A DNA stretch of 35,002 bases from Gemmatimonadota bacterium (GTDB lineage: Bacteria; Gemmatimonadota; Gemmatimonadetes; Gemmatimonadales; GWC2-71-9). The notes under the pieces are model-generated. The model saw only the letters and a list, made by a program, of their open reading frames with translations, was not told where the DNA came from and ran no database searches. The DNA is taken from NCBI GenBank assembly GCA_024641735.1, contig JAHECN010000012.1, forward strand, positions 1-35,002. The letters run 5' to 3'. Shown piece by piece: positions 4,181 through 35,002 of the stretch. Position 1 is the stretch's first letter; every line of letters starts with the position of its first letter. A program made the position numbers and the translations under genes.

Positions 4181-4800
4181 GCGCCGGCCTCCGTCTCGCC
4201 TTGGCGAAGGGACGACTCTACGACGCGACCGTAGCGCGACTCGCGGCCGCGGGAATCACGGTCGACGCTGACCCAGGTCGACGGCTGTTGATCCCGACGA
4301 GCAATCCGCTCCTTCAGGTGCTCGTGGTCAAACCCGGCGACGTGCCCGTCTATGTCGAGAATGGCGCCGCCGACCTCGGCGTGACCGGCACGGATGTACT
4401 CCGGGAGTCCGACGCGGACGTTCTGGAGCCTCTGGGATTGGGATTCGGTGCCTGCCGACTCGTCGTCGCGGCCCCAGCGGAGACGCCCTATCCCGGCCTC
4501 GCGCATGGCCGGACCGCCCGGGTGGCCACCAAGTATCCGCGTCTGGCCCGGAACTACTTCTCCTCGATGGGCAGATCGGTCGAGGTCATCATGGTGGGTG
4601 GGAGCGTCGAGGTGGCGCCGCTCCTCGGACTCTCGGATTGGATCGTCGACTTGGTCGACACCGGCGCCACGCTCAAGGCCAACGGGTTGACCGAGCGCGC
4701 CGTGATCCTCGAAAGCGCGGCTGTGCTGGTGGCGAATCGGGCGTCACAGAAATTGAAGCTGGAACAACATCTACGATTGATGCAGAGTCTGGGCGACTAG
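4177..4800 (+). CDS. hisG: ATP phosphoribosyltransferase catalytic subunit (short form)
   Basis: LRLALAKGRLYDATVARLAAAGI, ENGAADLGVTGTDVL, GSVEVAPLLGLSDWIVDLVDTGATLKANGL; 207 aa, no C-terminal regulatory domain. Confidence 0.95.
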   Translation: MSAGLRLALAKGRLYDATVARLAAAGITVDADPGRRLLIPTSNPLLQVLVVKPGDVPVYVENGAADLGVTGTDVLRESDADVLEPLGLGFGACRLVVAAPAETPYPGLAHGRTARVATKYPRLARNYFSSMGRSVEVIMVGGSVEVAPLLGLSDWIVDLVDTGATLKANGLTERAVILESAAVLVANRASQKLKLEQHLRLMQSLGD

Positions 4801-4865
4801 ACGAGAGACGAGAGAAGAGACAAGCTGCACGCTCCAATCTCTTCTCTCGTTTCTCCTCTCTCTAT
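4801..4865. repeat. GA/CT inverted repeat (copy A) filling the convergent hisG/GT2 gap; possible bidirectional terminator
   Basis: acgagagaagaga (4808-4820) and tctcttctctcgt (4838-4850) are perfect 13-nt reverse complements around a 17-nt loop; outer arms imperfectly pair (GA-rich left, CT-rich right). Confidence 0.85.
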
Positions 4866-12606: not shown

Positions 12607-14391
12607 TCAGTTCCGTTGGCCCACGCGACCGCTCAACCCGGCTTCCGCGAAGACACAGAGAAGCGCCAGCACGAGCAGAGGCCCACGAAGGTCCCCGCGC
12701 CCGCCAGCCAGGAAGGCCCGACGTGGGCCTTCTTCGAATCCTGCGACCGTGGTCCGGCCCCAGAGCGTACGCACGGCATCATCCTCGGCACGCGTCAAGT
12801 CCGATTCGCGTGGGTCGAGCAACACCGTGACGGCGCCCAAGGTATCCTCGCCGACCAGCAGGTGGTACACCCCGGTGCTCTTTGGAACCCAGAGACTGCC
12901 TCCCTCAACCGGCTGCCGCTGCCCCGCATAGGCCACTGCGGAGAGCGGATCGGGGAGGCGAATCGGCATTCCGGCGATCCCATCGGGGAGGGTCACTTCT
13001 CCGCGGAAGGCCTGACGAATGAGGGCGTCGAGCAACGGCACGAAACCGGTTTCGAGCGGCAACCCCGACCAGGCAGGCTCAAAGCGGGACCCCACCAGAA
13101 TCACATCGCCGCTCCGGACGACCCACGGTTCGCGCGCCACCGTGGCCAGCACTTCGCCGCCTCCGCGGCTCGGCTCAAGCCGAACTCGGGAGTGCACCTC
13201 GACAGGATCGGGGAGGAAGGCCGCGGAGTCCGATTGTTCTTCCCCACGCACGGTCCCTTCATACTGCCAGCCGACCCCTCGGGCGGCCAACCGCCGATTC
13301 AGTGCACCAAGGAGCGCCGGATCGGCGGGAGGTACGACCACGCTCGCTCCCGAGCCCAGGTCCCCAACCCGCACGCCCTCGCCCGGCATCGCCCGACCAT
13401 CCGCAACGAGCACCGCGAGCGCGGCATTGAGGAAACGCTCCGAGGGATCCCACCGCACGGACGGTGGGGGCGCCGCATACATCGCCACGGCGCGCTCGTC
13501 GTCAGCCCGAAACTCATCGGGTGGGAGGACGGCGCGCAGCATGCTCCAGCCACGCGGCACCACGGCCAACCGCACGGCCGTCGGGACACCGGGCACCAGC
13601 AGGACATCTCGCAGCGGAGCACCTTCGAACCCGACGGCGGCAGGAACTGGCACCGTATCTGTCGACTGCAGCGAGAGCGTCACCAATCCGCCATCGACGC
13701 CCCACGGCCCCGAACCGACCGTAAGCTCGGCAATACCTCGATTCTGTGGGACGGCATCGGTTGGACGGATGACCAGCACGTCGGCATCGCCGACGCTCGC
13801 GGAGAGTGCACTGCGCTGCATGTCGGAGAGCACGACCACGGCACCCGGCCGGTTCGCCTGTGCAACCAGGGTGCGACCCTCGGTCACAGCGGTCCCAAGA
13901 TCAAGCCGACTCGTCGTCGGTGCGAGCACCGCAAGACGTTGCCGGAGTTGGGCGCGCGTGCCAGGAACCGCGGGGCCGTCGGCGGTCCGCAGCCAGAGCT
14001 GATCTGCGGACGTCGCCTCGTCGAGCACGCGTCCCGCGGCACCAACCAGAGCGCTCAGGCGCGGCACGCCATCCACGATCACTCCACTGCTCGCACTGTT
14101 GTCGACGACCAGCACGACCGCGCTCGCCGCATGTCCACCCAAACCGATCCCCGCGCAGCGCATTCCCGCCGCTGCGAACACGAGCGCCAAGATCAGGAGT
14201 GTCCGCACGATCAACAACAAGAGATGACGGAGGTGGAGTCGGCGGCGATGATCGCGGGTGGCGTCGTCGAGATACCGGACCGCCGGAAACGCGACTTCTG
14301 GTGGCTCGTGTCGGTGCACCAGGTGCAGCAGGAGAGGCACGGCCGCGAGCGGGAGTCCCAGCAAGAGCCACGGGGCCGAAAATCCGATCAC
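12607..14391 (-). CDS. BatA-domain / vWA-like membrane protein
   Basis: From GTG 14391: VIGFSAPWLLLGLPLAAVPLLLHLVHRHEPPEVAFPAVRYLDDATRDHRRRLHLRHLLLLIVRTLLILALVFAAA (BatA N-terminal domain), MIDAS-like VVDNSAS; C-terminal TM. Confidence 0.85.
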   Translation of the reverse strand: MIGFSAPWLLLGLPLAAVPLLLHLVHRHEPPEVAFPAVRYLDDATRDHRRRLHLRHLLLLIVRTLLILALVFAAAGMRCAGIGLGGHAASAVVLVVDNSASSGVIVDGVPRLSALVGAAGRVLDEATSADQLWLRTADGPAVPGTRAQLRQRLAVLAPTTSRLDLGTAVTEGRTLVAQANRPGAVVVLSDMQRSALSASVGDADVLVIRPTDAVPQNRGIAELTVGSGPWGVDGGLVTLSLQSTDTVPVPAAVGFEGAPLRDVLLVPGVPTAVRLAVVPRGWSMLRAVLPPDEFRADDERAVAMYAAPPPSVRWDPSERFLNAALAVLVADGRAMPGEGVRVGDLGSGASVVVPPADPALLGALNRRLAARGVGWQYEGTVRGEEQSDSAAFLPDPVEVHSRVRLEPSRGGGEVLATVAREPWVVRSGDVILVGSRFEPAWSGLPLETGFVPLLDALIRQAFRGEVTLPDGIAGMPIRLPDPLSAVAYAGQRQPVEGGSLWVPKSTGVYHLLVGEDTLGAVTVLLDPRESDLTRAEDDAVRTLWGRTTVAGFEEGPRRAFLAGGRGDLRGPLLVLALLCVFAEAGLSGRVGQRN

Positions 14392-15296
14392 GCGGAGAGC
14401 GCCTGCAGGAGTGCCGTTCCAAACGGGAGGTCCGTCGGCACCAACGCGTACCGAATGCCCGACGCCCGGCAGGCACTCCCCCAGGCGCGGACCACGCCCG
14501 CGACCGTCTCCCGGTACTCGGAGGACCATTCGCTGGGCGCCACCGTCACGACGGCTCCCGTCTCAGGGTCACGAAAGCGTGTCTCGTCTCCCTGAGCCAG
14601 ATCGAGCTCTGCCGGGTCGGCGATATGCAGCACCAGTACCTGATGCCCGCGGTGTCGCAGAAAGCGGAGTGCCTTCAGCGTCAGCGTCCGATCCATCAAC
14701 AAGTCGGATATCAGCACCACCATGCCGCGGCGACGGAGTGCGGCCACCACCTGCGTCAGTGCCACGTCGGCAGCCGTTCCAGTCCCAGGACGCAGCGCAG
14801 CGAGCGACTCGGCCAGCGTCTGCCACTGTCCCGCGCGAACGCGGGCAGGCAGGATGTCCCTCACCTGCTCATCGAAGGTCACCAATCCAGTGGCGTCGCG
14901 TTGACGCAGCAGGACCAAGGCGAGCGCCGCACTGAGTCGGGTCGCGTAGTCGAGCTTGGTGAGCCGACCCTCCTCGCCTCGCCATGCCATCGAGGCCGAG
15001 GCATCGAGCACCAGCATGGCGCGCAGGTTGGTTTCTTCCTCAAATTGCTTGACGTACAGGCGGTCGGTCCGCCCCAGCAGCTTCCAATCCACGTACCGAG
15101 GATCGTCGCCAGGCTGGTACTGACGATGTTCCACGAACTCAACGGAAAAACCACGGCGTGGGGATCGATGGAGGCCGTGGAGAAAGCCCTCAACGATCGC
15201 CTGCGTCGTGACTTCCAGACCCCCGAGCCGGGCCACTTCTGCCGGCAGCAGCAGGTCCGGTCGGGTCGTTCGGGACGTGGCGGAAGGAAAGCTCAT
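14388..15296 (-). CDS. DUF58 domain-containing protein (vWA fold)
   Basis: SPRRGFSVEFVEHRQYQPGDDPRYVDWKLLGRTDRLYVKQFEEETNLRAMLVLDASASM; DUF58 signature and DxSxS. Confidence 0.92.
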   Translation of the reverse strand: MSFPSATSRTTRPDLLLPAEVARLGGLEVTTQAIVEGFLHGLHRSPRRGFSVEFVEHRQYQPGDDPRYVDWKLLGRTDRLYVKQFEEETNLRAMLVLDASASMAWRGEEGRLTKLDYATRLSAALALVLLRQRDATGLVTFDEQVRDILPARVRAGQWQTLAESLAALRPGTGTAADVALTQVVAALRRRGMVVLISDLLMDRTLTLKALRFLRHRGHQVLVLHIADPAELDLAQGDETRFRDPETGAVVTVAPSEWSSEYRETVAGVVRAWGSACRASGIRYALVPTDLPFGTALLQALSA

Positions 15297-15305
15297 GCGG
15301 CGCGG

Positions 15306-15334
15306 AACGTACGAGCCACGTTGCAGGGCGTCAA
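15306..15334 (-). promoter_or_regulatory. Candidate sigma70 promoter for the DUF58-mfd-surA-pdxA operon
   Basis: On minus strand TTGACG (15334-15329), 17-nt spacer, TACGTT (15311-15306), then 9 nt to ATG at 15296. Confidence 0.6.
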
Positions 15335-15458
15335 CGGAGTGTCACCAATCCGCTGGCCCTCCCGTAGAGGGAGGCGTGGCCGTGATATGTTTCGCACGTC
15401 CCCCCGATGGTGTTGAGAAGTGATTCCTGACGTTGGTCTCTTGAATGGAGTTTCGCGC

Positions 15459-17045
15459 ATGCGCTTTCCCGTCATCCGTCTTGCCACGGTCGCCCTCCTC
15501 CTCCCGGCGGCACTGCTCGCCCAATCGCCGAAACAGATCGCCAAGGCCGGCGCCCTCATCACTCCCGCCAAAGTCCTGCAGCGGATCAGCGTGATTGCCG
15601 ATGACTCGATGGGCGGGCGCAACACACCGAGTCCGGGGCTGGAGAAGGTCGCGCAATATCTGGCCGACAACTACAAGGCGTGGGGCTTGAAGCCCGCTGG
15701 CGAGAACGGCACCTACTTCCAGCGCTACCCCATGGTGAAGAAGGGAATCGACGTCGCGGCCTCCTACTTCGAAGCGGACGAGGGTGGGATCATCACGCGC
15801 TATCCCTTCAATGACCTCACGTTCGGGACCGGGGGAATGGAGAAGCCGGTCACTGGCCACGCCGTGTTGATCGGGGGAACGGTCACCGTCGCGGATATTG
15901 AGGCCGCCAGCGGGATCGAAGGCGCCGTTGTCCTGCTGGTCTCGGATGCGAGCAAGGCGGCGGCCTGGCGCATGGTCTCCCGCGCGGTCGCGTTGAAGAA
16001 GCCTGCCGCGATCATCATGCTCACGAATCAGGACGAAGTGATGTTCGGTCGACTGCGCGACGCCTCGGGGAACAGCCGCTTCACGGTGGAGACGTCGAAT
16101 GCGCGGCCGGTGGTGCCGACGATCACAATCCACGACAAGGCCTTCAACGCGACGGGCGGCAGCAACCGACCGGATTGGGACGCAATGCGCGCAGCCCCGA
16201 TGGCCATGATCCAGGCTGCCCCGCCGGAAATTTCCGTGACGGTCTTCGTCAAGGAGAACGTCCTTGAGCGCGTGATGGTACCCAACGTGGTGGCGATGGT
16301 CGAAGGGAGCGACCCGAAAATGAAGGATGAGTACGTGGTGTTTTCATCCCACATGGACCATGTCGGAACGGTCGGGGACGGCGTCGGGGGCTGCGGTGCC
16401 TTGACCCGTCCGGACGGGACCATCGACAACATCTGCAATGGCGCGGACGACGACGCGTCCGGCACCACCGGGTTGATGATGGTCGCCGAGGCCTGGGCCA
16501 AGCTCGACCGGAAGCCACGCCGTTCGATGATCATCCTGAATGTCTCTGGCGAGGAAAAGGGCCTGCTCGGATCGGCGTGGTATGCCGAGCACCCGACCGT
16601 CCCCGCTGAGAAGATTGTCGCCAACGTCAACATGGACATGATCGGCCGCAACAATCCTGACTCGATCGTCGTGATCGGCAAGGAACACTCCAATCTCGGC
16701 CAGACGCTGGCAAAGGTACAGGGCGCACACCCGGAGCTGAAGTTGATCGCGGCCGATGACATCTGGCCGGAGCAGAACTTCTACTCCCGCTCCGACCACT
16801 TCAACTTCGCGCGGAAGGGTGTGCCGGTGCTCTTCTTCTTCAACGGGGTGCATGAGCAGTATCACCGTCCCAACGATGAAGTCGCCCTGATCGACACCAG
16901 CAAGCTCTCGCGCGTAGCCAAGCTCGGCTTCTTCTTCGGGGTGGACGTGGCCAACTCGCCGATGCGTCCGGTCTGGAATCCCGAGAGCTATCAGACGATC
17001 GTGGTGGAACAGAAGACCCCGCAGCCAGCCAAGCGGACGCCGTAA
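15459..17045 (+). CDS. M28-family metallopeptidase with PA-like insert, secreted
   Basis: Signal peptide MRFPVIRLATVALLLPAALLAQ; zinc motifs SSHMDHVG, GADDDASGT, VSGEEKGLLGS, NMDMIGRN, SRSDHFNFARKGVPVLFFFNG. Confidence 0.9.
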   Translation: MRFPVIRLATVALLLPAALLAQSPKQIAKAGALITPAKVLQRISVIADDSMGGRNTPSPGLEKVAQYLADNYKAWGLKPAGENGTYFQRYPMVKKGIDVAASYFEADEGGIITRYPFNDLTFGTGGMEKPVTGHAVLIGGTVTVADIEAASGIEGAVVLLVSDASKAAAWRMVSRAVALKKPAAIIMLTNQDEVMFGRLRDASGNSRFTVETSNARPVVPTITIHDKAFNATGGSNRPDWDAMRAAPMAMIQAAPPEISVTVFVKENVLERVMVPNVVAMVEGSDPKMKDEYVVFSSHMDHVGTVGDGVGGCGALTRPDGTIDNICNGADDDASGTTGLMMVAEAWAKLDRKPRRSMIILNVSGEEKGLLGSAWYAEHPTVPAEKIVANVNMDMIGRNNPDSIVVIGKEHSNLGQTLAKVQGAHPELKLIAADDIWPEQNFYSRSDHFNFARKGVPVLFFFNGVHEQYHRPNDEVALIDTSKLSRVAKLGFFFGVDVANSPMRPVWNPESYQTIVVEQKTPQPAKRTP

Positions 17046-17049
17046 CTCC

Positions 17050-17385
17050 ATGGCCGACCTCGACGATTTCAACGCGTTCCGCACCAAGATGAACGACACG
17101 ATTCTTGGTGCGGGCAACTTGACCATCAACCGCTTCTTTGCGCTGGACAATCGTGCCTACGAGGCGGGCGCCCTCGGGACCAAGCAGAAGGAGATGCTTG
17201 GCCTGGTGGCGTCGATGGTCCTGCGCTGCGATGACTGCATCACCTACCACGTGGTCCGATGTCACGAGGAAGGCGTCACGCGCGAAGAGTTCCTGGAAAT
17301 CTTTTCGGTGGGATTGGTGGTCGGCGGGAGCATCGTGATTCCGCATCTCAGACGGGCGATGGAGCGACTGGAAGAACTGACCTGA
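17050..17385 (+). CDS. Carboxymuconolactone decarboxylase / AhpD-like protein
   Basis: 111 aa; LGLVASMVLRCDDCITYHVVRCHEEGVTREEFLEIFSVGLVVGG with CxxCxxxH redox motif. Confidence 0.9.
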   Translation: MADLDDFNAFRTKMNDTILGAGNLTINRFFALDNRAYEAGALGTKQKEMLGLVASMVLRCDDCITYHVVRCHEEGVTREEFLEIFSVGLVVGGSIVIPHLRRAMERLEELT

Positions 17386-17459
17386 AGAGAGAAGAGAGAC
17401 GAGAGAGGAGAGAGGAGTCTGTATTCTCTTCTCTCGTCTCTCCTTTCTCTTCTCTCTTG
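17384..17459. repeat. GA/CT inverted repeat (copy B) filling the convergent AhpD-like/EamA gap
   Basis: Left arm gaagagagaagagagacgagagaggagagaggag; right arm ctcttctctcgtctctcctttctcttctctctt. By eye 29/33 complementary with an 8-nt loop (tctgtatt). Confidence 0.88.
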
Positions 17460-18365
17460 TTAGCCCTCCGCCGCCGGCACCACCTTCTGTCTGGTCGCCA
17501 ACACGCCGCCGATGATCAACACTCCCCCTATCAGATGGGTGATGCCGGGGCGCTCGCCGAGTCCGACCATGGCGATCGCCGTGGCCACGAGGGGCACCAG
17601 CGTGTTGTAGGCCACGGTGCGTGCGGCACCGAGCTCGGCCACGCCGCGATTCCAGAGGATGTACGCGGCGACCAGCGACAGGAGACCGGCGTAGAGCAAG
17701 CCGCCCCACCCGACCCACGTCACTGCACTCCAATCCGTCCGCATCAACTCCGGCCACCCCAGGATGACCAATCCCGGCGTCCCCGTGTACATCGTCCACG
17801 CGGTGATCCGGAGCGACGAGATCGGGAGCCGCCAGTGCCGGAGGAGCAGCGTGTAGGCGGCCCATGTGACCACCGCGCCGAGCAGCAACAGGTCACCGGC
17901 ACGGATGCTGGTGTCGATCGTGGCGCCACGCGTCAGAATGACGATCACGACACCGACGGTGGCGATCGCGACGGCGAGCCGTTGCCGCAGCGTGGTCACT
18001 TCGATCCGGAGCAACCAAGTCGCCAGGACCACAATGGCGGGCATCCCGGCAAGGATGAGCGCGGTCTTTGTGGCTGACGTGCGGGCCAATCCTTCGATGA
18101 AGCAGAGCTGGTACAAGGTGTTTCCGATCAACCCCAGCCAGATCAGCTTGGTCCGGGCCCCGGGCGGGAGGGGTGTCGCCGGTTCGCGCCGCCGGAGGAT
18201 CAGCCAGAGGATCGCCGTGGCCAGCAAGAACCGGAGGGCGGTAAAGGCCAGCGGTTCGAGCTCCGCGAAGGCCAGCTTGGTCGCCGTGAAATTCCCGCCC
18301 CAGAAGAGGGTGACCAGCAACATCCCGGTGGACGCGGAGAGACGAGGGGGGGCGGAGTCTGACAT
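17460..18365 (-). CDS. EamA/DMT-family transporter
   Basis: [57 protein letters not shown]...; ~10 TM; second EamA repeat [19 protein letters not shown]. Confidence 0.92.
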
Positions 18366-18370
18366 GCCCG

Positions 18371-18376
18371 AATATA
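18371..18376 (-). promoter_or_regulatory. -10-like TATATT for the EamA transporter, 5 nt before ATG
   Basis: aatata at 18371-18376 (TATATT on minus), then cgggc, then ATG (18365). Confidence 0.5.
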
Positions 18377-18496
18377 GGAGAAAGGAGAAAAGAGAGCGGA
18401 GAACCGTTCGAAGGTGCCCCTGAGGGTGCCACGTCGGACCGGCCACCGCCCTCCTCTCGCTTCTCTCCTCTCTCTTCTCTCCCCTCGCCTCTCTCC

Positions 18497-18502
18497 TATA
18501 TT
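18497..18502 (+). promoter_or_regulatory. -10-like TATATT for lepA, 6 nt before ATG
   Basis: tatatt at 18497-18502, gccgcc, ATG at 18509; no SD between. Confidence 0.5.
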
Positions 18503-18508
18503 GCCGCC

Positions 18509-20308
18509 ATGCAACCGTCCCGGATTCGCAATTTCTGTATCGTCGCGCACATCGACCACGGCAAGTCCACCTTGGCGGACCGCCTGATTGAGGTGACCCA
18601 GACCGTCTCGAAGCGCGAGATGCGGGAGCAACTCACCGACACCATGGACCTCGAGCGTGAGCGGGGGATCACCATCAAGCTGAACGCCGTTCGGATGGGG
18701 TACACCGCGCCGGATGGGACCGAGTACGCCCTCAACCTGATCGACACGCCTGGGCATGTGGACTTCACCTATGAAGTCTCCCGCTCGCTGGCAGCGTGCG
18801 AGGGTGCAGTCCTCGTGGTGGACGCCTCGCAGGGCATCCAGGCCCAGACGCTCTCCAATCTCTTTCTGGCGCTCGATGCCGGCCTGGAGATCATACCGGT
18901 CCTGAACAAGATCGACCTCCCCGGCGCCGAGCCCGAGCGCCGGGCGCAGGAGATCATGGACCTGATTGGCGCCACCCGGGAAGAGATCCTCTCGGTCTCG
19001 GCCAAGGACGGGACCGGCGTCCCGGAGCTCCTCGAAGCCATCGTGGCGCGGGTTCCACCTCCCCGCGGAAACGAAGCCGCCCCCTTTCGCGCCCTGATCT
19101 TCGACTCCTACTACGATCGGTATCGTGGCGCGATCCCCTCCATTCGCGTCGTCGATGGTTCGATCGCCGCCGGAATGCAGGTCGCCTTCGGGGCACATCG
19201 CGAAGATGTCTACGACATCGCCGAAGTCGGCTACCTCGCGCTCGGCCAGCGACCGGCCAAGTCACTCAACGCCGGCGAGGTCGGCTACTTCATCGCCAAC
19301 TTGCGGCATGTCCGAGACGCCCGAGTCGGCGACACCGTGCTGGATGCCAAGCAGCCCGCCAAGGAACTCCTTGCGGGATATCGTGAAGTCCGTTCGATGG
19401 TCTTCGCCGGCATCTACCCGGCCGATGCCGCCCAGTACGAAGACCTGCGCGACGCGCTCGAGAAACTCTGCCTCAACGACGCCTCGCTGCACTATCTCCC
19501 GGAAAGCTCCACGGCGCTTGGCTTCGGCTTTCGCTGCGGCTTCCTCGGCCTGTTGCACATGGAGATCGTGCAGGAACGGCTTGAGCGAGAGTTCGACCTC
19601 AACCTGATCACGACCGTCCCGACGGTGGAGTACCACGTCTACCGCACCGATGGCGAGATGGTGCTGGTGGAGAACCCCTCGGAGCTCCCTGACACGGCGA
19701 GCATCACGCGGATCGAAGAGCCGTACGTGAAGGCGCGGATCATGGCCCCCACCGAATACATCGGCGGGATCATGAAGCTCGGTCAGGAGCGACGTGGCGA
19801 ATACCACGGCATGACGTATCTCGATTCTGCCCGTGTGGAGTTCTCGTTCTCCTTTCCGCTCGGCGAGATCGTACTCGACTTCTACGATCGACTCAAGTCC
19901 ATCACGCGGGGCTACGCGTCTCTCGACTACGAGATGGACGGCTTCCGGACCTCACCGCTGGTCCGCCTCGACATGCTGTTGAATGGCGACCCGATCGACG
20001 CCTTCTCGGTGATCATCCACCGCGACAAGGCATACGAATGGGGCCGCAAGCTGGCCGAGAAGCTCAAGGAACTCATTCCCCGGCAGCTCTTTGCCGTGGC
20101 GATTCAGGCGGCAGTCGGGCAAAAGGTGATCGCCCGGGAGAGCATCTCGCCGATGCGGAAGGACGTGTTGGCCAAGTGTTACGGCGGCGATATCAGCCGG
20201 AAGCGGAAGCTCTTGGAGAAGCAGAAGGAGGGCAAGAAGCGGATGAAGCAGGTCGGCTCCGTGGAGATTCCGCAGGAAGCGTTCTTGGCTGTTCTTCAGA
20301 TCGACTAG
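18509..20308 (+). CDS. lepA: Elongation factor 4
   Basis: 599 aa; [55 protein letters not shown]-terminal [41 protein letters not shown]. Confidence 0.99.
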
Positions 20309-20321
20309 CCCGGGAGGGGGG

Positions 20322-21323
20322 ATGGCGGACACGCTGGTGATCCAGACCGCCTTTCTGGGCGACGTGATCCTGACCACACCGTTGCTTGCGGTCCTCGCCG
20401 AGCGCCATGGGCCACTCGATGTCGTCACCACGCCGGGCGCCGCCCCCTTGCTCCGTGGTCATCCGGCCGTGCACCGTGTCATTCCGCACGACAAACGCGG
20501 CACCGAACGCGGGCCCAGAGGGATCGCGACCCTCGCCGCGCGGCTCCGTGCATCCGGGTACCGTCGGGCCTATCTTCCCCATCAGTCCTGGCGCAGCGGA
20601 TTGGCCGCCCGATTGGCGGGCATCCCGGAGCGCATCGGGTTCGACGATGCCCCGGCGCGACTGACGTATACGCGCCGGATTCCGAGACCTACAGACACGC
20701 ATGAAGTCGACCGCATCTTGGCGCTGGCCGAGGGAGGGTCCACTGCCCCGATCTCCCTGGGATTGAGTGTCAGCGAGCTGGCCGAAGGCGATGCGTGGCT
20801 TGAGCAGCGCAGGCTGTCACACGGCTTCGTCGCCTTGGCACCAGGATCGGTCTGGGCGACGAAGCGGTGGGGGAAGTACCCGGCCCTTGCCACGGCGCTG
20901 GCAGCACCGCTGGTCGTGCTTGGGGGGCCAGAAGAGCGGGAGTTGGGCGAGGCGGTGATCGCGGGATGCGGTACGCGCGCAGTCAACGCGGCTGGCACCC
21001 TGCCACTCCGGATCTCGGCGGCAGTGCTGAGTCGGGCGGCCGTGCTGGTGACGAATGATTCGGCGCCGCTCCATATGGCGCAGGCCACCGGAACGACGAC
21101 GATCGCCCTCTTCGGTCCGACGGTGACCGCGTTCGGTTTTGGCCCCCGTGGGCCACGTGATCTGGTCCTGCAGGTCGACGGACTCGAGTGCCGCCCCTGC
21201 TCGGCGCACGGACCGCAGCGTTGCCCGTTGGTGCATCACCGCTGCATGCAGGATCTCGAACTTGCGCGCGTTACCTCCGCGGTGCGTGACGCCCTGACTT
21301 TCCACGGAACGAGGCACACCTGA
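20322..21323 (+). CDS. Glycosyltransferase family 9 (heptosyltransferase-like)
   Basis: LVIQTAFLGDVILTTPLLAVLAERHG, LAPGSVWATKRWGKYPALA, LVTNDSAPLHMAQATGTTTIALFGPT; strong SD ggaggggggATG. Confidence 0.9.
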   Translation: MADTLVIQTAFLGDVILTTPLLAVLAERHGPLDVVTTPGAAPLLRGHPAVHRVIPHDKRGTERGPRGIATLAARLRASGYRRAYLPHQSWRSGLAARLAGIPERIGFDDAPARLTYTRRIPRPTDTHEVDRILALAEGGSTAPISLGLSVSELAEGDAWLEQRRLSHGFVALAPGSVWATKRWGKYPALATALAAPLVVLGGPEERELGEAVIAGCGTRAVNAAGTLPLRISAAVLSRAAVLVTNDSAPLHMAQATGTTTIALFGPTVTAFGFGPRGPRDLVLQVDGLECRPCSAHGPQRCPLVHHRCMQDLELARVTSAVRDALTFHGTRHT

Positions 21324-22300
21324 ACTACGTACTCGGGATCGATGTCGGCGGAACCAATTTGGTCGTGGGTGCCGTCGCGGAAGACGGCTCGCGCGTTGTC
21401 GGGAGCCATTCGCATCCGACAGATGCGACGCGCGGCCCGGAGGCAATCGTCACGGACTTAGTGGCGATGAGTCAACAGACGTTGGCCGCCTTGGCCTCGG
21501 AAGACCCCTCGGCCACCGTGCTTGGAGTGGGTGTCGGAGCGCCCGGCCCGCTGGATCGTCACGCCGGGGTTGTGCTGCTGACGCCAAATCTCGGGTGGAC
21601 CAACATGCCGCTTCGCGCCAGGCTGGGCGAGGGGCTGGGACTGACCGCCGCGCTCGACAATGACGCCAACTGCGCCGTGCTGGGCGAAGCCTGGGTCGGT
21701 GCAGCCCGTCAGGGGCGCCATATCATCGGCATGACGATCGGCACGGGCATCGGTGGGGGCATTGTCCTGGACGGCAGGCTCCATCATGGGGCGTCAGACT
21801 GCGCCGGGGAAATCGGTCATGTCACCATCGATCTTGATGGTCGTCGTTGTGGCTGCGGGAATTACGGTTGCCTGGAGGCGTATGCGTCCGGTCCCGCAAT
21901 CGCGCGTCGTGCCGTCGAGCAAATTGAGAGCGGTGCCGAGAGTGCGCTCGTGCAGATGGTCGGCGGCAACTTGGCATTGATCACGGCACAAACCGTGTAC
22001 GCCGCGGCAGAAGAAGGCGACGAGGTCGCCGACGAAGTCGTCAGCACGACGGCGCGCTATCTCGGGGCAGGACTCGCCAACTTGGTCAACATCTTCAACC
22101 CGGACCTCGTGGTGATCGTCGGCGGCGTCACCCAAGCAGGGGAGAAGCTCTTTGTGCCGCTCCGCCGCGAGGTAGCCCGTCGAGCCTTCAAGCCCGCCGT
22201 GCAGGCGTGCACAATCGTCCCCGGGACGCTGGACGGCCTCGCCGGCGTCTATGGCGCTGCCCGAGCATTTCTCGATCAACGCGCCGAGGGAATGGTCTGA
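21320..22300 (+). CDS. ROK-family sugar kinase/protein, apparent CTG start
   Basis: Frame LNYVLGIDVGGTNLVVGAVAEDG, DNDANCAVLGEAWVGAARQGRHIIGMTIGTGIGGGIVLDG, GRRCGCGNYGCLEAYAS (ROK zinc motif). The only usable start upstream of DVGGTN is CTG at 21320, overlapping the GT9 stop (CTGA). Confidence 0.88.
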   Translation: MNYVLGIDVGGTNLVVGAVAEDGSRVVGSHSHPTDATRGPEAIVTDLVAMSQQTLAALASEDPSATVLGVGVGAPGPLDRHAGVVLLTPNLGWTNMPLRARLGEGLGLTAALDNDANCAVLGEAWVGAARQGRHIIGMTIGTGIGGGIVLDGRLHHGASDCAGEIGHVTIDLDGRRCGCGNYGCLEAYASGPAIARRAVEQIESGAESALVQMVGGNLALITAQTVYAAAEEGDEVADEVVSTTARYLGAGLANLVNIFNPDLVVIVGGVTQAGEKLFVPLRREVARRAFKPAVQACTIVPGTLDGLAGVYGAARAFLDQRAEGMV

Positions 22301-23262
22301 TGCCACGAGTCGGGGTCCTCGGCTCGCTGGTCTGGGACCAGATTCATGGTCGTGATCCCCATGCCGCCCCGGTGGAAGAATGGGGCGGGATCGCCTACGC
22401 CTTGGCCGGGATGGACGCGGCCCTTCCGCCCGAGTGGGAGATGGTGCCACTGATCAAGGTGGGTCAGGACCTCGCCCCAAAAGCTGCGGACTTCTTCCGG
22501 AGCCTCACGCGATTGGGACCGGGCTTTCGTCCACTGGAAGTGCCGGTTCCCAACAACCGCGTGACCCTCCGATACCAATCCGTGGAACGGCGCTGTGAAC
22601 AGATGTCCGGCGGGGTCCCCGGCTGGACCTGGGATGAACTGGGACCGATGGTGGCGGACCTCGACGCGCTATATATCAACTTCATCTCGGGGATGGAGTG
22701 TTGCCTCTTCACGGCGACGCAACTGCGGCGTGGGTTCGATGGGCCGATCTATGCGGACCTGCATTCGCTCTTCCTCGGCATCGGCAGTGATGGTATGCGG
22801 CACTTGCGGCCACTCCCGGAAGCGCCTGGCTGGTTCGCCTGCTTCGACATCGTGCAACTCAACGAGGAGGAGATGCTGCAACTCGCTGCCGAACCACTCC
22901 CCGTTGCTGCCGACGCCCTGCGCGCTGGTGTGTCCCTGCTCACGGTCACCGTCGGCGCGCGTGGCGCGATCTATTTCGCGCGGCCGGGATTCGACCGCCT
23001 CTCCGACCTGTCCGTGAGGGCCGTTCCCGCAGGCGAGGTGGGCGCGGTGCGCACGGCGCGCCTCGGTGGTCCCGAAATTGACGTGCTTGACCCCACCGGG
23101 TGCGGCGACGTCTTCGGTGCGACCGCATTTGCCCGGCTGCTGGCGGGTGACGATGTTGTGACGGCGACCACTGCAGCCAATCGTGCCGCGGCGCGCAATG
23201 CGACCTATCGTGGTGCTTCCTCACTCGCGCGACACTTGCGCGGCGACCTGGTGCTGGCCTGA
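22300..23262 (+). CDS. PfkB-family carbohydrate kinase
   Basis: MPRVGVLGSLVWDQIHGRD...EEWGGIAYALAG; C-terminal LDPTGCGDVFGATAFARLLAG (PfkB signature 2 variant); TGATG junction with ROK gene. Confidence 0.87.
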   Translation: MPRVGVLGSLVWDQIHGRDPHAAPVEEWGGIAYALAGMDAALPPEWEMVPLIKVGQDLAPKAADFFRSLTRLGPGFRPLEVPVPNNRVTLRYQSVERRCEQMSGGVPGWTWDELGPMVADLDALYINFISGMECCLFTATQLRRGFDGPIYADLHSLFLGIGSDGMRHLRPLPEAPGWFACFDIVQLNEEEMLQLAAEPLPVAADALRAGVSLLTVTVGARGAIYFARPGFDRLSDLSVRAVPAGEVGAVRTARLGGPEIDVLDPTGCGDVFGATAFARLLAGDDVVTATTAANRAAARNATYRGASSLARHLRGDLVLA

Positions 23263-24158
23263 TGCATGTGCTCCCTGTTCCCACCTATCTCGACGATCGC
23301 AGCCTCGACCAGCTGGCTGCGAACCTGCCCAGTTGGCCGCCAGAGCAACGGCTGTTGGTCGATGCCCACGCCACGGAATGGGCCTCGCCCGCGGGCTTCA
23401 CGGCCCTGCTCACCCTCGGACAAGCCTTGAAGGAGATCGGTGGTCCTGCCCCCCGACTCACGCTGCCTGGTGCCGATGGCGTAGCGTCCTACTGGGCCAA
23501 GGCCGGGTTCCTCCAGCATGCGGATGACTTCTTTGAGCTCCACGGCAAGGTGCCCCGTCGCAAGGCGGCGGAGACGAGCGAAACACTGCTCGACGTGACG
23601 CCGATTCGGGAATCCAAGGATGTCCACGAGATCGTCGGACGCATCAACGAGCGGTCGACGCAGATTCTGAAGCGCGAGTTGGACCTCGAGGCGAGTGTCG
23701 TGGGCGGCTTCGGGCAATCGCTGTCCGAGACGTGCCAGAACATCACCGAGCATGCCGGCACCGGTGGCTGGGTGGCCGTGCATGTCTACAACTTTCGGCG
23801 GCGCCTCGGGCGCAAGGCCGTCGTGATCGCGGTCAGTGATGCGGGGATCGGATTTCGGCGCTCGCTGGAGGCAACGCAGGCAAAGCGCTTCGGCGACCGG
23901 TGGAGCGACGGCCTCGCCATCGAGACCGCGTTGATTCACAACATCTCCCGCTTCCGCGATCCTGGACGCGGGCAGGGACTGGCGGGGACGAAGCGATATC
24001 TCGCACGGTGGCATGGAAAGATCTCGATTCGCTCTGGCACGGCGCGGGTCTGCATTCCACCCGCCTGGGATGATGAGCCGCCCATGACCGAAGGGCTCGG
24101 CTGGTTCCCGGGATCTCAGGTGACCATCGTGATTCCCGCACGCGAGAGCGCCTCGTGA
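23262..24158 (+). CDS. STAS-like N-terminal domain fused to HATPase_c (GHKL) ATP-binding protein
   Basis: N-terminal LLVDAHATEWASPAGFTALLTLGQAL (STAS-like); C-terminal SLSETCQNITEHA (N-box), VSDAGIGF (G1), GRGQGLAGTKRYLARW (G2). Confidence 0.78.
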   Translation: MHVLPVPTYLDDRSLDQLAANLPSWPPEQRLLVDAHATEWASPAGFTALLTLGQALKEIGGPAPRLTLPGADGVASYWAKAGFLQHADDFFELHGKVPRRKAAETSETLLDVTPIRESKDVHEIVGRINERSTQILKRELDLEASVVGGFGQSLSETCQNITEHAGTGGWVAVHVYNFRRRLGRKAVVIAVSDAGIGFRRSLEATQAKRFGDRWSDGLAIETALIHNISRFRDPGRGQGLAGTKRYLARWHGKISIRSGTARVCIPPAWDDEPPMTEGLGWFPGSQVTIVIPARESAS

Positions 24159-24700
24159 GCGCCGTCATCCGGATCGAGCGGCTCCTCCATGAGACGATCG
24201 CCACACCCTATTCGGATCTGGTGACGCGTCCGACTGGAGCCGCAGTACGCCAGCGCGTGCTGGATGCCCTGCATGAGGCCGCGGGCGATGAAGCGCACCT
24301 GGATTTCTCGGCGGTTGGCCTGGTCGACTTCTCCTGCGCGGACGAGGTCGTCGCGAAGTTGGTCGGCCAGCTGCCGGACCTCCCCGTCCTCCGGCTGCAC
24401 TTGTCCGGCTTGCGGGAGGATCACGCGGAGGCGATCGAACACGCCCTCCGCTGCCACGGGCTCGCCGTGGTGGCAGTGTTCGTGGACTCCCCGCGGCCGC
24501 GTCTCTTGGGGACGGTCCCGGAGGATTGGCAGGTGGTCTTTGCACTCTTGAGTGAAATGGGGCGCGCCCCCGCCCCACCCGTCGCCGAAGCGCTTGCCTG
24601 GCCATTGGTGCGCGCACGTGCGGCGCTGGACGCCTTGGCGGCCGGGGGCTGCCTCTGTGCCCACCCAGATGACACCTTCGAGCTTGGAGCGGTAGCATGA
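24155..24700 (+). CDS. STAS-like (anti-anti-sigma type) protein with C-terminal wHTH-like segment
   Basis: HLDFSAVGLVDFSCADEVVAKLV STAS-like core; C-terminal PPVAEALAWPLVRARAALDALAAGGCLCAHPDDTFELGAV resembles a winged helix; GTGA overlap with the upstream gene. Confidence 0.7.
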   Translation: MSAVIRIERLLHETIATPYSDLVTRPTGAAVRQRVLDALHEAAGDEAHLDFSAVGLVDFSCADEVVAKLVGQLPDLPVLRLHLSGLREDHAEAIEHALRCHGLAVVAVFVDSPRPRLLGTVPEDWQVVFALLSEMGRAPAPPVAEALAWPLVRARAALDALAAGGCLCAHPDDTFELGAVA

Positions 24701-25845
24701 CGAAGCGGCTCGGTCTCTCCACGATTGCCATTCACGGCCGAACCCCGCACCGCGGTGCGGACTGGACCCCTGCGGTCACGCCGATCTATCAGAGCGCGAC
24801 CTTCCGGAATCCGCTCGGGAGCGACGCCGACGTCCTCTACACCCGCTACGGCAACAATCCCAACCAGCGGGCCATTGCCGAGCGCTACGCCGGCCTCGAA
24901 GGGGCGGAGGACGCCATCTTCGTGGCGAGTGGCATGGCGGCCACCGCGCTCGCGCACCTCGCGGTCCTCCGTCCAGGAGATCACCTCCTCGCGTCGCGCT
25001 GGATTTACGGTGGAACACGCACGCTGTTCGACACGGAGTTCGGTCGATTTGGCATCGAAGTGAGCTACGTCGATCCCGATCACCCGCGCGCGTGGCGCAA
25101 GGCGCTGCGCCCCAACACCCGGGCGATTTTTGTGGAGGCGTTGACCAACCCCCTCATGCGGGTCGTCGACGTTCCCGCGATTGCCAAGATCACCCGTGAG
25201 CATGGACTCGCGCTGCTGGTGGATGGCACATTCTGTTCCCCGGTGATGTTCCGGCCACTCGAGCATGGCGCCGACATCGTGATCACCAGCGCGACGAAGT
25301 ACCTCAATGGCCACAGCGACATCATCGCGGGTGCCATCGCGGGGAGCAGTTCCGTGATTGAGGAGGTGACGCGGCTGATGCGGCTCTGGGGGCCGTCCAT
25401 CGATCCCCACGCGGCGTGGTTGACCGAACGCGGCATGAAGACGCTGTCGCTGCGCGTGGAACGCCAGCATCGCAACGCCATGGCCATCGCGCAGTGGGCC
25501 GCGACACGTCCTGCATTCAGCGCCGTGCATTATCCCGGCTTGACCACCCACCCCGATCACGCGCTCGCCACCGAGCTCTTCTCGGGATACGGTGGGATGG
25601 TCGGCCTGATGATGGCAGGGGGCGTTGAGGCCGCGCAACGGTTCCTGGCGCACTTGCGATTGGTGACGCACGCACCCTCGCTCGCCGGCGTGGAGTCCCT
25701 GATCTGTGAACCGCGATTGACCTCGCACAAGGGCGTCGGCGCGGAGGAACGCGAGGCGCTGGGCATTCCGGATGGCTTCCTGCGTCTCTCCTGCGGTTGT
25801 GAGGACATCGATGACTTGCTCGCGGATTTGGCGGGCGCGCTCTAG
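24697..25845 (+). CDS. Cys/Met-metabolism PLP-dependent enzyme (cystathionine gamma-synthase/lyase-like)
   Basis: PIYQSATFRNPLGSDADVLYTRYGNNPNQRAIAERYAGLEGAEDAIFVASGMAA; PLP lysine motif DIVITSATKYLNGHSDIIAGAI. Confidence 0.94.
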   Translation: MTKRLGLSTIAIHGRTPHRGADWTPAVTPIYQSATFRNPLGSDADVLYTRYGNNPNQRAIAERYAGLEGAEDAIFVASGMAATALAHLAVLRPGDHLLASRWIYGGTRTLFDTEFGRFGIEVSYVDPDHPRAWRKALRPNTRAIFVEALTNPLMRVVDVPAIAKITREHGLALLVDGTFCSPVMFRPLEHGADIVITSATKYLNGHSDIIAGAIAGSSSVIEEVTRLMRLWGPSIDPHAAWLTERGMKTLSLRVERQHRNAMAIAQWAATRPAFSAVHYPGLTTHPDHALATELFSGYGGMVGLMMAGGVEAAQRFLAHLRLVTHAPSLAGVESLICEPRLTSHKGVGAEEREALGIPDGFLRLSCGCEDIDDLLADLAGAL

Positions 25846-25854
25846 CGCCCCGGC

Positions 25855-25860
25855 TATCTT
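25855..25860 (+). promoter_or_regulatory. -10-like TATCTT 6 nt before the ftsE GTG start
   Basis: ggcTATCTTccttctGTG; no SD in the 6-nt gap. Confidence 0.4.
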
Positions 25861-25866
25861 CCTTCT

Positions 25867-26553
25867 GTGATTCGCTTTACCAAGGTCTCGAAGCACTACC
25901 CGACCGGCACGACGCCGGCCCTCGACGACGTGAACTTCCACGTCGCGCGCGGGGAGTTCGTCTTCATGACGGGACACTCCGGCGCGGGCAAATCGTCCAT
26001 CCTCAAATTGATGTACGGGGACGAACGCCCGAGCAGCGGTGACGTGCGGGTGTCAGGCTTCCACATCGGCACGTTGACACGCGATGAAGTCCCGCGTCTG
26101 CGCCGCCGGCTCGGCATCGTCTTCCAGGACTTTTCGCTCCTCGAGGATCGGACGGCCGCCGAAAACATCGCCTTTGCCCTCGAGGTCACCGGATCCCGCG
26201 TGGACATGATTCCGGCGCGCGTCACCAAGGTCCTGGCGCAGGTCGGACTCCTCGCGAAGGCCGAGGCGTTTCCGCGCGAGCTCTCCGGCGGCGAGCAGCA
26301 GCGCGTGTCCATCGCCCGCGCCTTGGTGAATGATCCGCCGATCCTGCTGGCCGACGAGCCCACCGGCAATCTCGACGAGCGCGCCACACGCGGCGTCTAT
26401 CAGCTGCTCTTGGACATCAACGCCCAGGGGACGGTGGTCGTCATGGCGACGCACAACCTGGATCTGGTCCGGTTCGGAGGACAGCGCACGCTGGAGCTTC
26501 GCGACGGCAAGCTGGTCTTCGATTCGGGCGTCGATGTGGGAGATGACGCATGA
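25867..26553 (+). CDS. ftsE: Cell division ATP-binding protein FtsE
   Basis: [51 protein letters not shown]...[34 protein letters not shown]. Confidence 0.96.
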
Positions 26554-27419
26554 ACTTGCTCCTGCGCGAAGCCTTGATCGCCTTCCGGCGCACGCGGACA
26601 CTCTCCGTACTATCCATCACGACGATCGCCTTCGCCCTGTTCGTGACCGGACTCTTTGGACTCGTCGCCCTCAACATGCGCTCGGCGCTCCGCAACGTGG
26701 CCGAACGGGTGGAGATCGTGGCCTTCGTCTATCGTGGGACGCCGTCGATGCAGTTGACCGCCGCGAGCTCCGACATCGCCGCCTTCCCTGAAGTCCTCGA
26801 AGTCCAGTACGTCTCCGAGGAAGAGGCGTTGGTCCGTGCCCGCCGAGACTTGGTCGAGTTTCAGGAAGCGTATCAGGACCTGGAGATCAACCCGCTTCCC
26901 CCGTCGCTCGAGATCCGACTCCGACCCGAGTACCGCGACGCCAAGCATGCGGGAGACGTCGCCGAGCGCCTGCATGGCTTCGAGTTCGTGGAGGACGTCC
27001 GCTACGGACGCGATTGGGTGGAACGCCTCGATGCCCTCCGGCAGATCGCAGGATTCGTCGGGCTCGCGATCGGTGCGGCCTTCGGTCTCGTGAGCATCGT
27101 GATCATCGGCGTCACCATCCGCATGACCGTCCTGCATCGCGCCCGCGAGATCCGCATCATGCGTCTGGTGGGAGCCACGGATTGGTTTATCCGTGGACCG
27201 TTCCTGTTGGAAGGCGCCCTCAAGGGCCTCATCGGTGGCATCCTCGCGGCCATCCTCTGTGGCGTCGTCTTCGGCGCCTTTGAGGCCGGCAATTTCGGGC
27301 TTGGCATGGGACTCACGTTCTTCGGCCCGCTGGAAGTCGTGTTCCTGATCGTCTTCGGTGTGCTCCTCGGACTCACCGGCTCGCTGGTGAGTGTGGGCCG
27401 GCATCTCAAGAAAGTCTGA
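26550..27419 (+). CDS. ftsX: Cell division permease FtsX
   Basis: [47 protein letters not shown]..., FtsX extracellular domain and 4 TM; ATGA overlap with ftsE. Confidence 0.95.
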
Positions 27420-27420
27420 T

Positions 27421-27526
27421 ATGCGAGAGGAGAGAGGAGGGAGGAGAGAAGCGAACGGACGGGTGGGGTGGCGTCCACCGCTCCGTCGCGTACACCTCCT
27501 CTCCTTTCTCTTTTCTCTTCTCTCGG
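27421..27526. repeat. GA/CT inverted repeat (copy D) at the ftsX/envC junction, overlapping the envC-like 5' end
   Basis: GA arm atgcgagaggagagaggagggaggagagaag; CT arm cctcctctcctttctcttttctcttctctcgg; central imperfect pairing gcgaacgga/tccgtcgc and ggtgg-cgt-ccacc. Confidence 0.8.
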
Positions 27527-28683: not shown

Positions 28684-28701
28684 CCGCCTGAAGTTCGCGG
28701 G

Positions 28702-30126: not shown

Positions 30127-30130
30127 TCCA

Positions 30131-31066: not shown

Positions 31067-31098
31067 CCCCGGGCCCCTGTCCCCGGCATCTTCGGAGG

Positions 31099-31698: not shown

Positions 31699-32342
31699 AG
31701 GGCCGACTCGCGTGCCTCATCAGCCTGGTTGCCGTCACCGCCTGCGCCGACATCGTGCCCCCGGCACAACGCGAAGGCTACGAGTATCGTCAGATCCTCG
31801 GCACCGACACATTGTCGTTCAAATGGGATCCAAGTCTGCTCCCCGTGAAGATCTGGATCGCGGACGACTCTCCCCTGCGTTCCCATTTGATCACGGCGAT
31901 CAGCCGATGGGAGCAGGCGTTCGTCTACGGAGAGTTCCGCGCCACGTTGGTAAGCGACTCGAGCCGTGCAGACATCATCGTCCGCAACGCGCCGCCGACC
32001 AGTGGCGCAGGGCTGCGGCTTGCTGCGTTTGCGAGTCAGTGTCTCGGCGAGACCACCTACCAGTTGGGCAGCGCGCCGAAGACCCTCCAACTGCCATGGC
32101 GTGTCCATGTGTGGCCCGCATCGAATCCCAATGCCACCGGCATTCAGGATTGCTACCGCATCACGGTGACGCACGAGCTCGGACACGCGCTGGGTATCAT
32201 CAACGCCAATCACGCGGGCGCACTGCCAACCGATGTGATGTACCGTGACCCGGTTGCTGATGGATTGAGTGAACGTGATCGCAACACGATTGAGCGGCTA
32301 TACCATAGCCGAACGACTTTGACGGCCGTGCCCCGGCCATGA
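31695..32342 (+). CDS. Metzincin/matrixin-like zinc metalloprotease, predicted lipoprotein
   Basis: GTG 31695 (GTGA overlap); [17 protein letters not shown] lipobox; [27 protein letters not shown] (HExxH + Met-turn-like VMY). Confidence 0.8.
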
Positions 32343-34212: not shown

Positions 34213-34220
34213 ATGGTCGC

Positions 34221-34319
34221 GAGTCGTGAGTCGTTGGTCGTGGGAGGGTCAATGCGCATGCCGCGCGACGAGATCCACACTGCTGAGGTAGCCCGCTGAA
34301 AACTCACGACTCACGACTC
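34221..34319. repeat. Inverted repeat built of tandem heptamer GAGTCGT / ACGACTC
   Basis: gagtcgtgagtcgt (34221-34234) is an exact reverse complement of acgactcacgactc (34306-34319); 71-nt spacer. Confidence 0.85.
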
Positions 34320-35002
34320 ACCCCTCGCTTCCAAGTCATTCGCGATCCGCTCTGGGACAACATCCGCCTGGAGCCGATCGCCGCCGCCGCCATGGACACG
34401 CCTGCGGTCCAGCGGCTGCGTTACGTGCGCCAACTCGGCCACGCCTTCCTGGTCTACCCCGGCGCCACGCACTCTCGCTTCGAACATGCCCTCGGCGCCT
34501 ACCACCTCACGCGCCGCGCCCTCGGCACGCTGGATGAGCGTGGCGACCTTGATGGCATCCCCGAAGAGGATCGTCTTGCGGTCCGCCTCGCCGCCCTGCT
34601 CCATGACATCGGGCACTATCCCTTCTCACACGCATTGGAAGAGGCAGGATTCCCCTCCCACGAGGCGCTCGGCGTCGCACGACTCGGGCAGGGCGAATTG
34701 GGTGTACTGCTGCGATCGATCGGTGGTGACGCCTTCATCGCGCAGATTGCCGGCATCATTCAGGGGACCGGCGCCTCCGTGCTCGGCGGATTGGTCTCCG
34801 GGTCACTCGATCTCGACAAGATCGACTATCTCTCGCGGGACGCCAGACAATGTGGCGTGCCCTATGGGCAAGTCGATGTCGATCGCCTGCTCGCTTCGCT
34901 CTGCATCGTGACCGAAGCCGACGGGCGTCGGTCCGTCGGGGTGCACGAGAAGGGTGTCAGTGCGTTGGAGTCGCTGCTCTTCGCGAAGTATCAGATGTAT
35001 CG
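34296..35002 (+). CDS. HD-domain phosphohydrolase (dNTPase/SAMHD1-like), 3'-truncated; start uncertain
   Basis: Frame FQVIRDPLWDNIRLEPIAAAAMDTPAVQRLRYVRQLGHAFLVYPGATHSRFEHALGAYHL...LLHDIGHYPFSHALE. First in-frame ATG is 34392; homology-like sequence begins upstream, possible CTG at 34296. Confidence 0.8.
   Translation, partial: MKTHDSRLTPRFQVIRDPLWDNIRLEPIAAAAMDTPAVQRLRYVRQLGHAFLVYPGATHSRFEHALGAYHLTRRALGTLDERGDLDGIPEEDRLAVRLAALLHDIGHYPFSHALEEAGFPSHEALGVARLGQGELGVLLRSIGGDAFIAQIAGIIQGTGASVLGGLVSGSLDLDKIDYLSRDARQCGVPYGQVDVDRLLASLCIVTEADGRRSVGVHEKGVSALESLLFAKYQMY

What the first reader, a model, noticed from the sequence alone, without database searches (positions are those of the whole stretch)
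17384..17459. Dispersed family of GA/CT low-complexity inverted repeats that fill gene boundaries
At least four loci (4801-4865, 17384-17459, 18371-18502, 27421-27526) carry one GA-only-like arm and one CT-only-like arm in inverted orientation with unrelated loops. The arms share a word style (gagagaagaga, gaggagaga, cgagag) but are not exact copies. In the two convergent gaps the repeat occupies essentially the whole stop-to-stop interval. The family is conserved in composition and pairing rather than in exact sequence, unlike ordinary REP/MITE copies. It could be a bidirectional terminator or RNase III hairpin, a homopurine triplex (H-DNA) former, or a repeatedly seeded mobile hairpin. I cannot tie it to a named family.
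Basis: partly seen in the sequence, partly recalled or inferred. Interest (0 to 1): 0.82.

Follow-up and report, generated by a model that had tools for sequence, protein, structure and literature searches.

The report
Paired seven-base repeat hairpins between genes
The GA/CT hairpins are one spelling of a large family of facing seven-base tandem repeats that fill gene junctions in this Gemmatimonadota bacterium; related species put different seven-base words in the same junctions, which resembles a little-studied repeat class reported in Xanthomonas and Geobacter.

Summary
In the window's genome (a Gemmatimonadota MAG) the arms are degenerate tandem heptamers with consensus AG(A/T)NG(A/T)G. 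GAGAGGA is one of several words; others are GAGTCGT (a fifth window copy, 34214-34333), GATGATG and GAGAACG. In an unbiased 202 kb, 23 arrays have period 7; periods 2-6, 8-11 and 13 have none. They lie head-to-head, purine-richer arm first (50/50), and the two arms of a locus mirror each other unit by unit. Loops are unrelated. About 12% of gene junctions carry arrays. Junctions with them are about 80-100 bases wide, those without about 10, so the elements are insertions or expansions, usually touching the upstream stop codon. Congeners fill some of the same junctions with arrays of other words (9 of 31 tested, 2.3 expected). One copy (27421-27526) encodes a predicted signal peptide. Closest known: Xanthomonas GGGAATC inverted heptamer pairs (Rehm 2015) and Geobacter metallireducens paired heptamers (Aklujkar 2009). 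Most words lack G-runs and are not homopurine, so neither G-quadruplex nor H-DNA is the shared feature. Best reading: a self-spreading repeat tolerated at gene ends, with REP-like RNA hairpins as side effect. A terminator role is possible but not favoured.

The parts
4799..4820 (+). 5' (purine) arm, heptamer array AGACGAG-AGACGAG-AGAAGAG, directly after the hisG stop (TAG 4798-4800)
4838..4859 (-). 3' (pyrimidine) arm of the same element; convergent gap hisG / glycosyltransferase
17385..17417 (+). 5' arm, about 5 heptamers (GAAGAGA, GAAGAGA, GACGAGA, GAGGAGA, GAGGAG), at the stop of the carboxymuconolactone-decarboxylase-family gene
17426..17458 (-). 3' arm, ends next to the EamA transporter gene stop; loop 17418-17425 (8 nt)
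18371..18402 (+). 5' arm in the divergent EamA/lepA gap; outer end contains TATA-like AATATAG
18449..18502 (-). 3' arm (period-7 CT array 18449-18497 plus TATATT) just before the lepA ATG at 18509
27425..27451 (+). 5' arm at the ftsX stop; also codes for the start of the EnvC-like M23 peptidase ORF (ATG 27421, MREERGGRRE...)
27496..27522 (-). 3' arm; in the reading frame codes for the hydrophobic core LLSFLFSLLS of the predicted signal peptide
34214..34242 (+). 5' arm of a fifth element with another word (GGTCGCG-AGTCGTG-AGTCGTT-GGTCGTG), directly after the PEPCK stop
34305..34333 (-). 3' arm (CACGACT units) of the fifth element, before the HD-type gene

Best explanation
Each locus is a head-to-head pair of degenerate heptanucleotide tandem arrays, (AGNNGNG)n - loop - (CNCNNCT)n. 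It was inserted or expanded at a gene junction, usually directly behind the stop codon of the upstream gene. The most likely mode of existence is a self-spreading simple-sequence repeat. Arrays gain and lose 7-nt units by slippage (inferred). The two arms are kept complementary by copying across the hairpin or cruciform, or by inverted template switching (mirroring shown, process inferred). Multi-unit segments are copied between loci (shared unit order shown, process inferred), so each species carries its own dominant words. The arrays are tolerated mainly behind stop codons because that is the only non-coding, non-promoter room in a compact genome. Read as RNA they form strong hairpins from either strand, so REP-like effects on mRNA 3' ends or partial attenuation are plausible side effects.
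For: Period 7 is exclusive: 23 arrays in an unbiased 202 kb, none at lags 2-6, 8-11 or 13, one at 12, harmonics at 14, none in dinucleotide shuffles. Several words occur in one genome and some arrays switch word in register. Positions A1, G2, G5 and G7 are constant in 78-94% of 251 units. In-register arm complementarity exceeds one-unit-shifted complementarity in 45 of 50 loci, and the own partner arm is the best match in 24 of 50 loci against about 3 by chance. Loops share nothing except further arrays. A composite unit order, AGTCGTT-GGTCGTGAG, is shared by at least 8 loci. Median gap with arrays is 77.5 (convergent) and 100 (codirectional) against 8 and 10 without. Words are species-specific: GAGTCGTGAGTCG 84 times in own, 0 in G004, G006 and G009; GATGACN x3 159 times in G004, 0 in own. 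The ftsX-envC junction is invaded in several species, with a native-looking signal-peptide region left in the loop in G009 and G013.
Against: No copying enzyme was identified. Pure slippage does not explain why a few words dominate one genome. Excess sharing of orthologous junctions (9 of 31 against 2.3 expected) could mean selection for an element there rather than neutral tolerance. All 50 elements fold far better than shuffles, as expected for a functional hairpin too.
Confidence: 0.5

Rival explanations
1. Selected 3'-end hairpins: bidirectional transcription attenuators or terminators, or mRNA-stabilising stems, used by the host at gene ends.
For: Median distance to the upstream stop is 2 nt in 30 codirectional gaps. 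Convergent junctions are most often occupied (6/20 against 12/122 codirectional and 2/20 divergent). Both strands fold strongly. Orthologous junctions share elements more than background.
Against: No U-tract; the terminator scan of 14000-32000 finds none of them. Most convergent junctions have a median 8-nt gap and no element. Copies sit inside the ftsX-envC junction, where transcription must pass through to envC, and in the divergent lepA promoter gap. Congeners lack them at many of the same junctions.
Confidence: 0.27
2. Paired binding sites for a DNA- or RNA-binding protein that reads 7-nt-phased AGNNGNG units (global regulator or nucleoid protein), as proposed for the paired sites of Geobacter metallireducens.
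For: Constant positions in the unit, constant facing orientation, fixed period, and excess at orthologous junctions. Precedent: PMC2700814.
Against: Words differ between and within genomes, and unit length is 8 in G013. No candidate protein. Arms mirror each other in unit order, which separate binding sites would not need.
Confidence: 0.12
3. Non-autonomous mobile hairpin (MITE/REP type) moved by a transposase acting on the arms.
For: Dispersed, species-specific, new sites relative to congeners; nested elements (G007 PEPCK gap).
Against: Loops are unrelated and there is no conserved terminal tetranucleotide. Y1_Tnp/RAYT is absent from G009, which has arrays, and the single own copy has no arrays nearby.
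Confidence: 0.09
4. Arrays added to DNA ends by a telomerase-like reverse transcriptase (DRT10-like), leaving head-to-head repeats.
For: Facing purine-rich tandem repeats look like fused telomeres (architecture); a bacterial RT making tandem-repeat DNA is described in PMC12632851 (abstract seen).
Against: No RVT_1 match in the own genome or in 8 of 9 congeners. Arms mirror each other in unit order.
Confidence: 0.02

Closest known systems
(GGGAATC)n heptameric repeats of Xanthomonas (Rehm et al. 2015, PMC4692102)
   Same: 7-nt tandem unit, 183-186 arrays per genome, 89-93% intergenic, 70-75 facing inverted pairs, close to the 5' neighbour ORF (28 nt against 160 nt downstream), fewer between divergent genes, length variable between relatives.
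   Different: There one G-quadruplex-forming word dominates. Here there are many words per genome, most without G-runs, word switching inside arrays, and different words at the same junction in congeners.
Paired tandem-heptamer/octamer sites of Geobacter metallireducens (Aklujkar et al. 2009, PMC2700814; classes 1-3)
   Same: Tandem 7-8 nt units in pairs on opposite strands at variable spacing, dispersed in one species and not in its relative.
   Different: Consensus words differ (MTYCTGA etc.); 8 to 24 pairs per class; interpreted as regulator binding sites.
TAACTGA direct heptamer repeats of Beggiatoaceae (MacGregor 2015, PMC4679880)
   Same: Abundant intergenic heptamer arrays specific to a lineage.
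   Different: Direct, almost never inverted, and mostly just upstream of start codons.
REP/BIME elements with RAYT transposases
   Same: Dispersed palindromes at gene ends, few in divergent gaps (own knowledge of the family).
   Different: REP copies share sequence and a GTAG-type head; here the sequence is a variable tandem word and no RAYT association is seen.

Membership tests
Xanthomonas-type heptameric inverted-pair repeats (Rehm 2015) | tandem unit of 7 nt | tested here: met
Xanthomonas-type heptameric inverted-pair repeats (Rehm 2015) | facing inverted pairs, intergenic, next to the upstream ORF | tested here: met
Xanthomonas-type heptameric inverted-pair repeats (Rehm 2015) | word with G-tracts able to form G-quadruplex | tested here: not met
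   GAGTCGT, GAGAGGA, GATGACA have no GGG; only minority words such as GGGTGAG and GGGAACA do
Xanthomonas-type heptameric inverted-pair repeats (Rehm 2015) | under-representation between divergent genes | tested here: inconclusive
   2/20 divergent against 12/122 codirectional and 6/20 convergent
Geobacter metallireducens paired sites (class 3) | tandem heptamers in pairs on opposite strands, variable spacing | tested here: met
   definition
Geobacter metallireducens paired sites (class 3) | consensus MTYCTGA | tested here: not met
   own words differ
Intrinsic terminator | GC-rich stem followed by U-tract | tested here: not met
   no site at 17384, 18371 or 27421; flanks lack T-runs
Intrinsic terminator | RNA 3' ends at the element | not testable with these tools
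   needs Term-seq
REP/RAYT | conserved head tetranucleotide and linked Y1 transposase | tested here: not met
   no consensus outside arms; Y1_Tnp absent in G009 and not near arrays in own
H-DNA (homopurine mirror repeat) | homopurine arms as the shared trait | tested here: not met
   GTCGT-word arms are about 60% purine
Rfam families | match to a curated RNA family | tested here: not met
   no hit in the window

The most novel reading that the evidence does not exclude
The element's position and architecture (facing, 7-nt phased AGNNGNG arrays at fixed junctions) are kept across a genus while the word is replaced genome-wide in each species. That would be concerted turnover of a repeat word, driven by an unknown copying process or a co-evolving binding factor, and it would belong to a cross-phylum class (Gemmatimonadota, Xanthomonas, Geobacter, perhaps Bacteroidota) that has not been recognised as one.
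Probability: 0.3. Interest if true: 0.78.

Novelty: new variant of a known kind. Interest (0 to 1): 0.58.

Why it matters
Heptamer inverted pairs were described one word and one genus at a time, and the Xanthomonas and Nostoc repeats were studied as G-quadruplexes. A genus in which every sampled array-bearing species uses its own words, partly at the same junctions, separates the constant parts (period 7, facing pairs, gene ends) from the accidental ones (G-runs, homopurine). It also makes the origin of bacterial 7-nt repeats testable by comparison of close strains. One case suggests that such a repeat was domesticated as a signal peptide.

Tried and rejected
(1) GA/CT homopurine (H-DNA) as the defining trait: rejected, other words are not homopurine. 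(2) G-quadruplex: rejected as the shared trait. (3) Intrinsic terminator with U-tract: not met. (4) Telomerase/DRT10-like RT, suggested by the fused-telomere look: no RVT_1 in the own genome. (5) RAYT/REP: absent from G009. (7) Known RNA family: no Rfam hit. (9) Early readings of minus-strand loci were in the wrong orientation and were redone.

Full report
IDENTITY. The window is contig 93 of a draft genome of 2.75 Mb in 245 contigs, 96% complete. Its LepA protein is closest to Gemmatimonadota MAGs (80% to a Gemmatimonadales bacterium). Relatives used below are unnamed handles; G001-G009 are in the same genus.

OBSERVATION. The four GA/CT inverted repeats exist at the stated coordinates. 535 kb of other own-genome sequence has 30 against 2. 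The two convergent gaps are filled from stop to stop.

WHAT THE ARMS ARE. A de novo inverted-repeat scan with no assumption on composition shows that most long short-loop inverted repeats of this genome (50 of 71) have arms that are tandem heptamers. Example at 17385: GAAGAGA GAAGAGA GACGAGA GAGGAGA GAGGAG. In an unbiased 202 kb (window plus contigs 1-20) 23 arrays have lag 7. Lags 2-6, 8-11, 13 and 15 have none, lag 12 has one, lag 14 is the harmonic, and dinucleotide shuffles give none. GAGAGGA is only one word. GAGTCGT (84 exact GAGTCGTGAGTCG in the genome), GATGATG, GAGAACG, GCGAACG, GGGTGAG and AGTCGTA also occur, and the window has a GAGTCGT copy at 34214-34333 behind PEPCK. Some arrays change word half-way while keeping the 7-nt register. 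Units anchored in that register have A1 87%, G2 78%, G5 94% and G7 86%; the anchor words themselves carry these positions, so the figures are partly built in.

ARCHITECTURE. In 50 period-7 elements the purine-richer arm is always 5'. Sequence identity between arm 1 and the reverse complement of arm 2 is higher in register than shifted by one unit in 45 of 50 loci; the pairing was chosen as the best register, which favours this result. The own partner is the best match in 24 of 50 loci, against about 3 expected, and here both sides were given the best register. So the arms of a locus mirror each other beyond sharing a word, although a minority of loci face arrays of different words. Loops share nothing except further arrays. 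RNA folding z-scores have median -6 and all are below -2.

POSITION. Genes were called with a home-made codon-usage caller that reproduces the expected window genes. In 30 codirectional gaps the element starts at a median 2 nt from the upstream stop and ends at a median 34 nt before the next start. In the unbiased sample 12/122 codirectional, 6/20 convergent and 2/20 divergent junctions carry an array. Median gap with an array is 100 (codirectional) and 77.5 (convergent), against 10 and 8 without. The elements therefore are the gap: they are insertions or expansions in otherwise tight junctions. This explains much of the stop-codon proximity without invoking termination (inference). Half of the 570 kb sample was chosen because it contains elements, so only the unbiased numbers should be read as rates.

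RELATIVES. The same-genus genomes that carry such arrays in the sampled stretches use period 7, mostly with other words: G004 GATGACA, GAGAAGG, GAGACTA; G009 GTGAAAC, GAGAGAC, GTGAGCG; G001 GAGAGAC; G007 GTGAAAG, GTCGTAG. G013, another genus, uses period 8, and G022, G027, G029 and G043 show none in 100 kb each. GATGACN x3 occurs 159 times in G004, 9 in G005 and nowhere else in the genus. The same junctions hold facing arrays of other words. Behind hisG: own GAGAGAC, G007 GTGAAAG, G004 GATGACA. Behind EamA: own, G002, G009. Behind PEPCK: own GAGTCGT; G007 a nested GTCGTAG-outside, GTGAAAG-inside pair, mirrored. EamA/lepA gap: own, G009, and an 8-nt version in G013. ftsX/envC: own, G001, G009, and 8-nt versions in G013, G040 and G042. 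Across five junctions and congeners, 9 of 31 cells are occupied against 2.3 expected from per-genome rates (simulated P about 3e-4; 5 of 21 against 1.3, P about 0.008 with the better-sampled genomes only). This is either shared descent with word turnover or hot spots; the data do not separate them. Polarity is fixed per word but not universal: in G011 the pyrimidine-rich TTCGCTA array comes first.

THE 27421 COPY. It starts behind the ftsX stop and reads through in frame as MREERGGRREANGRVGWRPPLRRVHLLSFLFSLLSVAPLAAQ-SNPDLE. It looks like the signal peptide of the M23 peptidase that follows, with the CT arm coding for the hydrophobic core. In G009 and G013 the loop still holds a native-looking hydrophobic segment and the CT arm lies between it and the cleavage site. 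Predicting a signal peptide from the letters is inference.

MECHANISM. Shown: fixed period, facing orientation, arm mirroring, shared multi-unit segments between loci (AGTCGTTGGTCGTGAG at 8 loci), species-specific words, wide gaps only where arrays are. Inferred: slippage for unit number, hairpin-templated or template-switch copying for arm matching, ectopic copying for spread, tolerance at gene ends. Against a terminator: no U-tract, presence inside the ftsX-envC junction and in a divergent gap, and absence in many congeners. Against RT addition: no RVT_1 in the own genome. Against RAYT mobility: no Y1_Tnp in G009.

COMPARISON. Rehm et al. 2015 (PMC4692102) describe (GGGAATC)n in Xanthomonas with the same unit length, facing inverted pairs, intergenic place and proximity to the upstream ORF, and state that no function is known. 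Aklujkar et al. 2009 (PMC2700814) describe paired opposite-strand tandem heptamers and octamers in Geobacter metallireducens. The present family has the same architecture but fails the quadruplex feature and has many words, so it is a new variant of that kind.

LIMITS. Draft MAGs, own gene calls, a 20% sample of the genome, no transcript data, five orthologous junctions.

Noticed in passing
window 27421-27540: An invasive repeat appears to have become the signal peptide of an EnvC-like M23 peptidase; similar co-option in G001, G008 and G009.
   Followed up: partly
window 18360-18510; lepA loci L070-L077: TATATT/TATTTT box 8-12 nt before the lepA ATG in most relatives and on the opposite strand before EamA, suggesting leaderless divergent promoters; the arms end exactly at these boxes in the own genome.
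   Followed up: no
L100:10667-10829 (G000:C9 about 30667): Heptamer element flanked on both sides by GTTTCACGTGAAAC palindromes that look like parS sites.
   Followed up: no
L063:11211-11283 and L106:10837-10903: A second, unrelated palindromic repeat (GTGCGACGCATGCGTCGCACC) in two copies facing each other.
   Followed up: no
L100:12973-13305 and L100:15382-15613: Long (86-94 nt) inverted repeats sharing arms with each other; possibly a REP-like or MITE family.
   Followed up: no
G013 stretches L272, L273; L167: Relatives with unit length 8 (CGGTCGGG) or 8/9 instead of 7, in the same facing layout.
   Followed up: partly
L200:17732-17806 (Bacteroidales): Facing AGTTAAA heptamer arrays in another phylum.
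   Followed up: no
L328 (G004, behind EamA) and L319 (G004, behind PEPCK): Where the heptamer element is missing G004 has other hairpins, one a G+C-rich stem (GGGGGGCGAGCC/GGCTCGCCCCCC) followed by GTTGGGCTTT that looks like an ordinary terminator.
   Followed up: no
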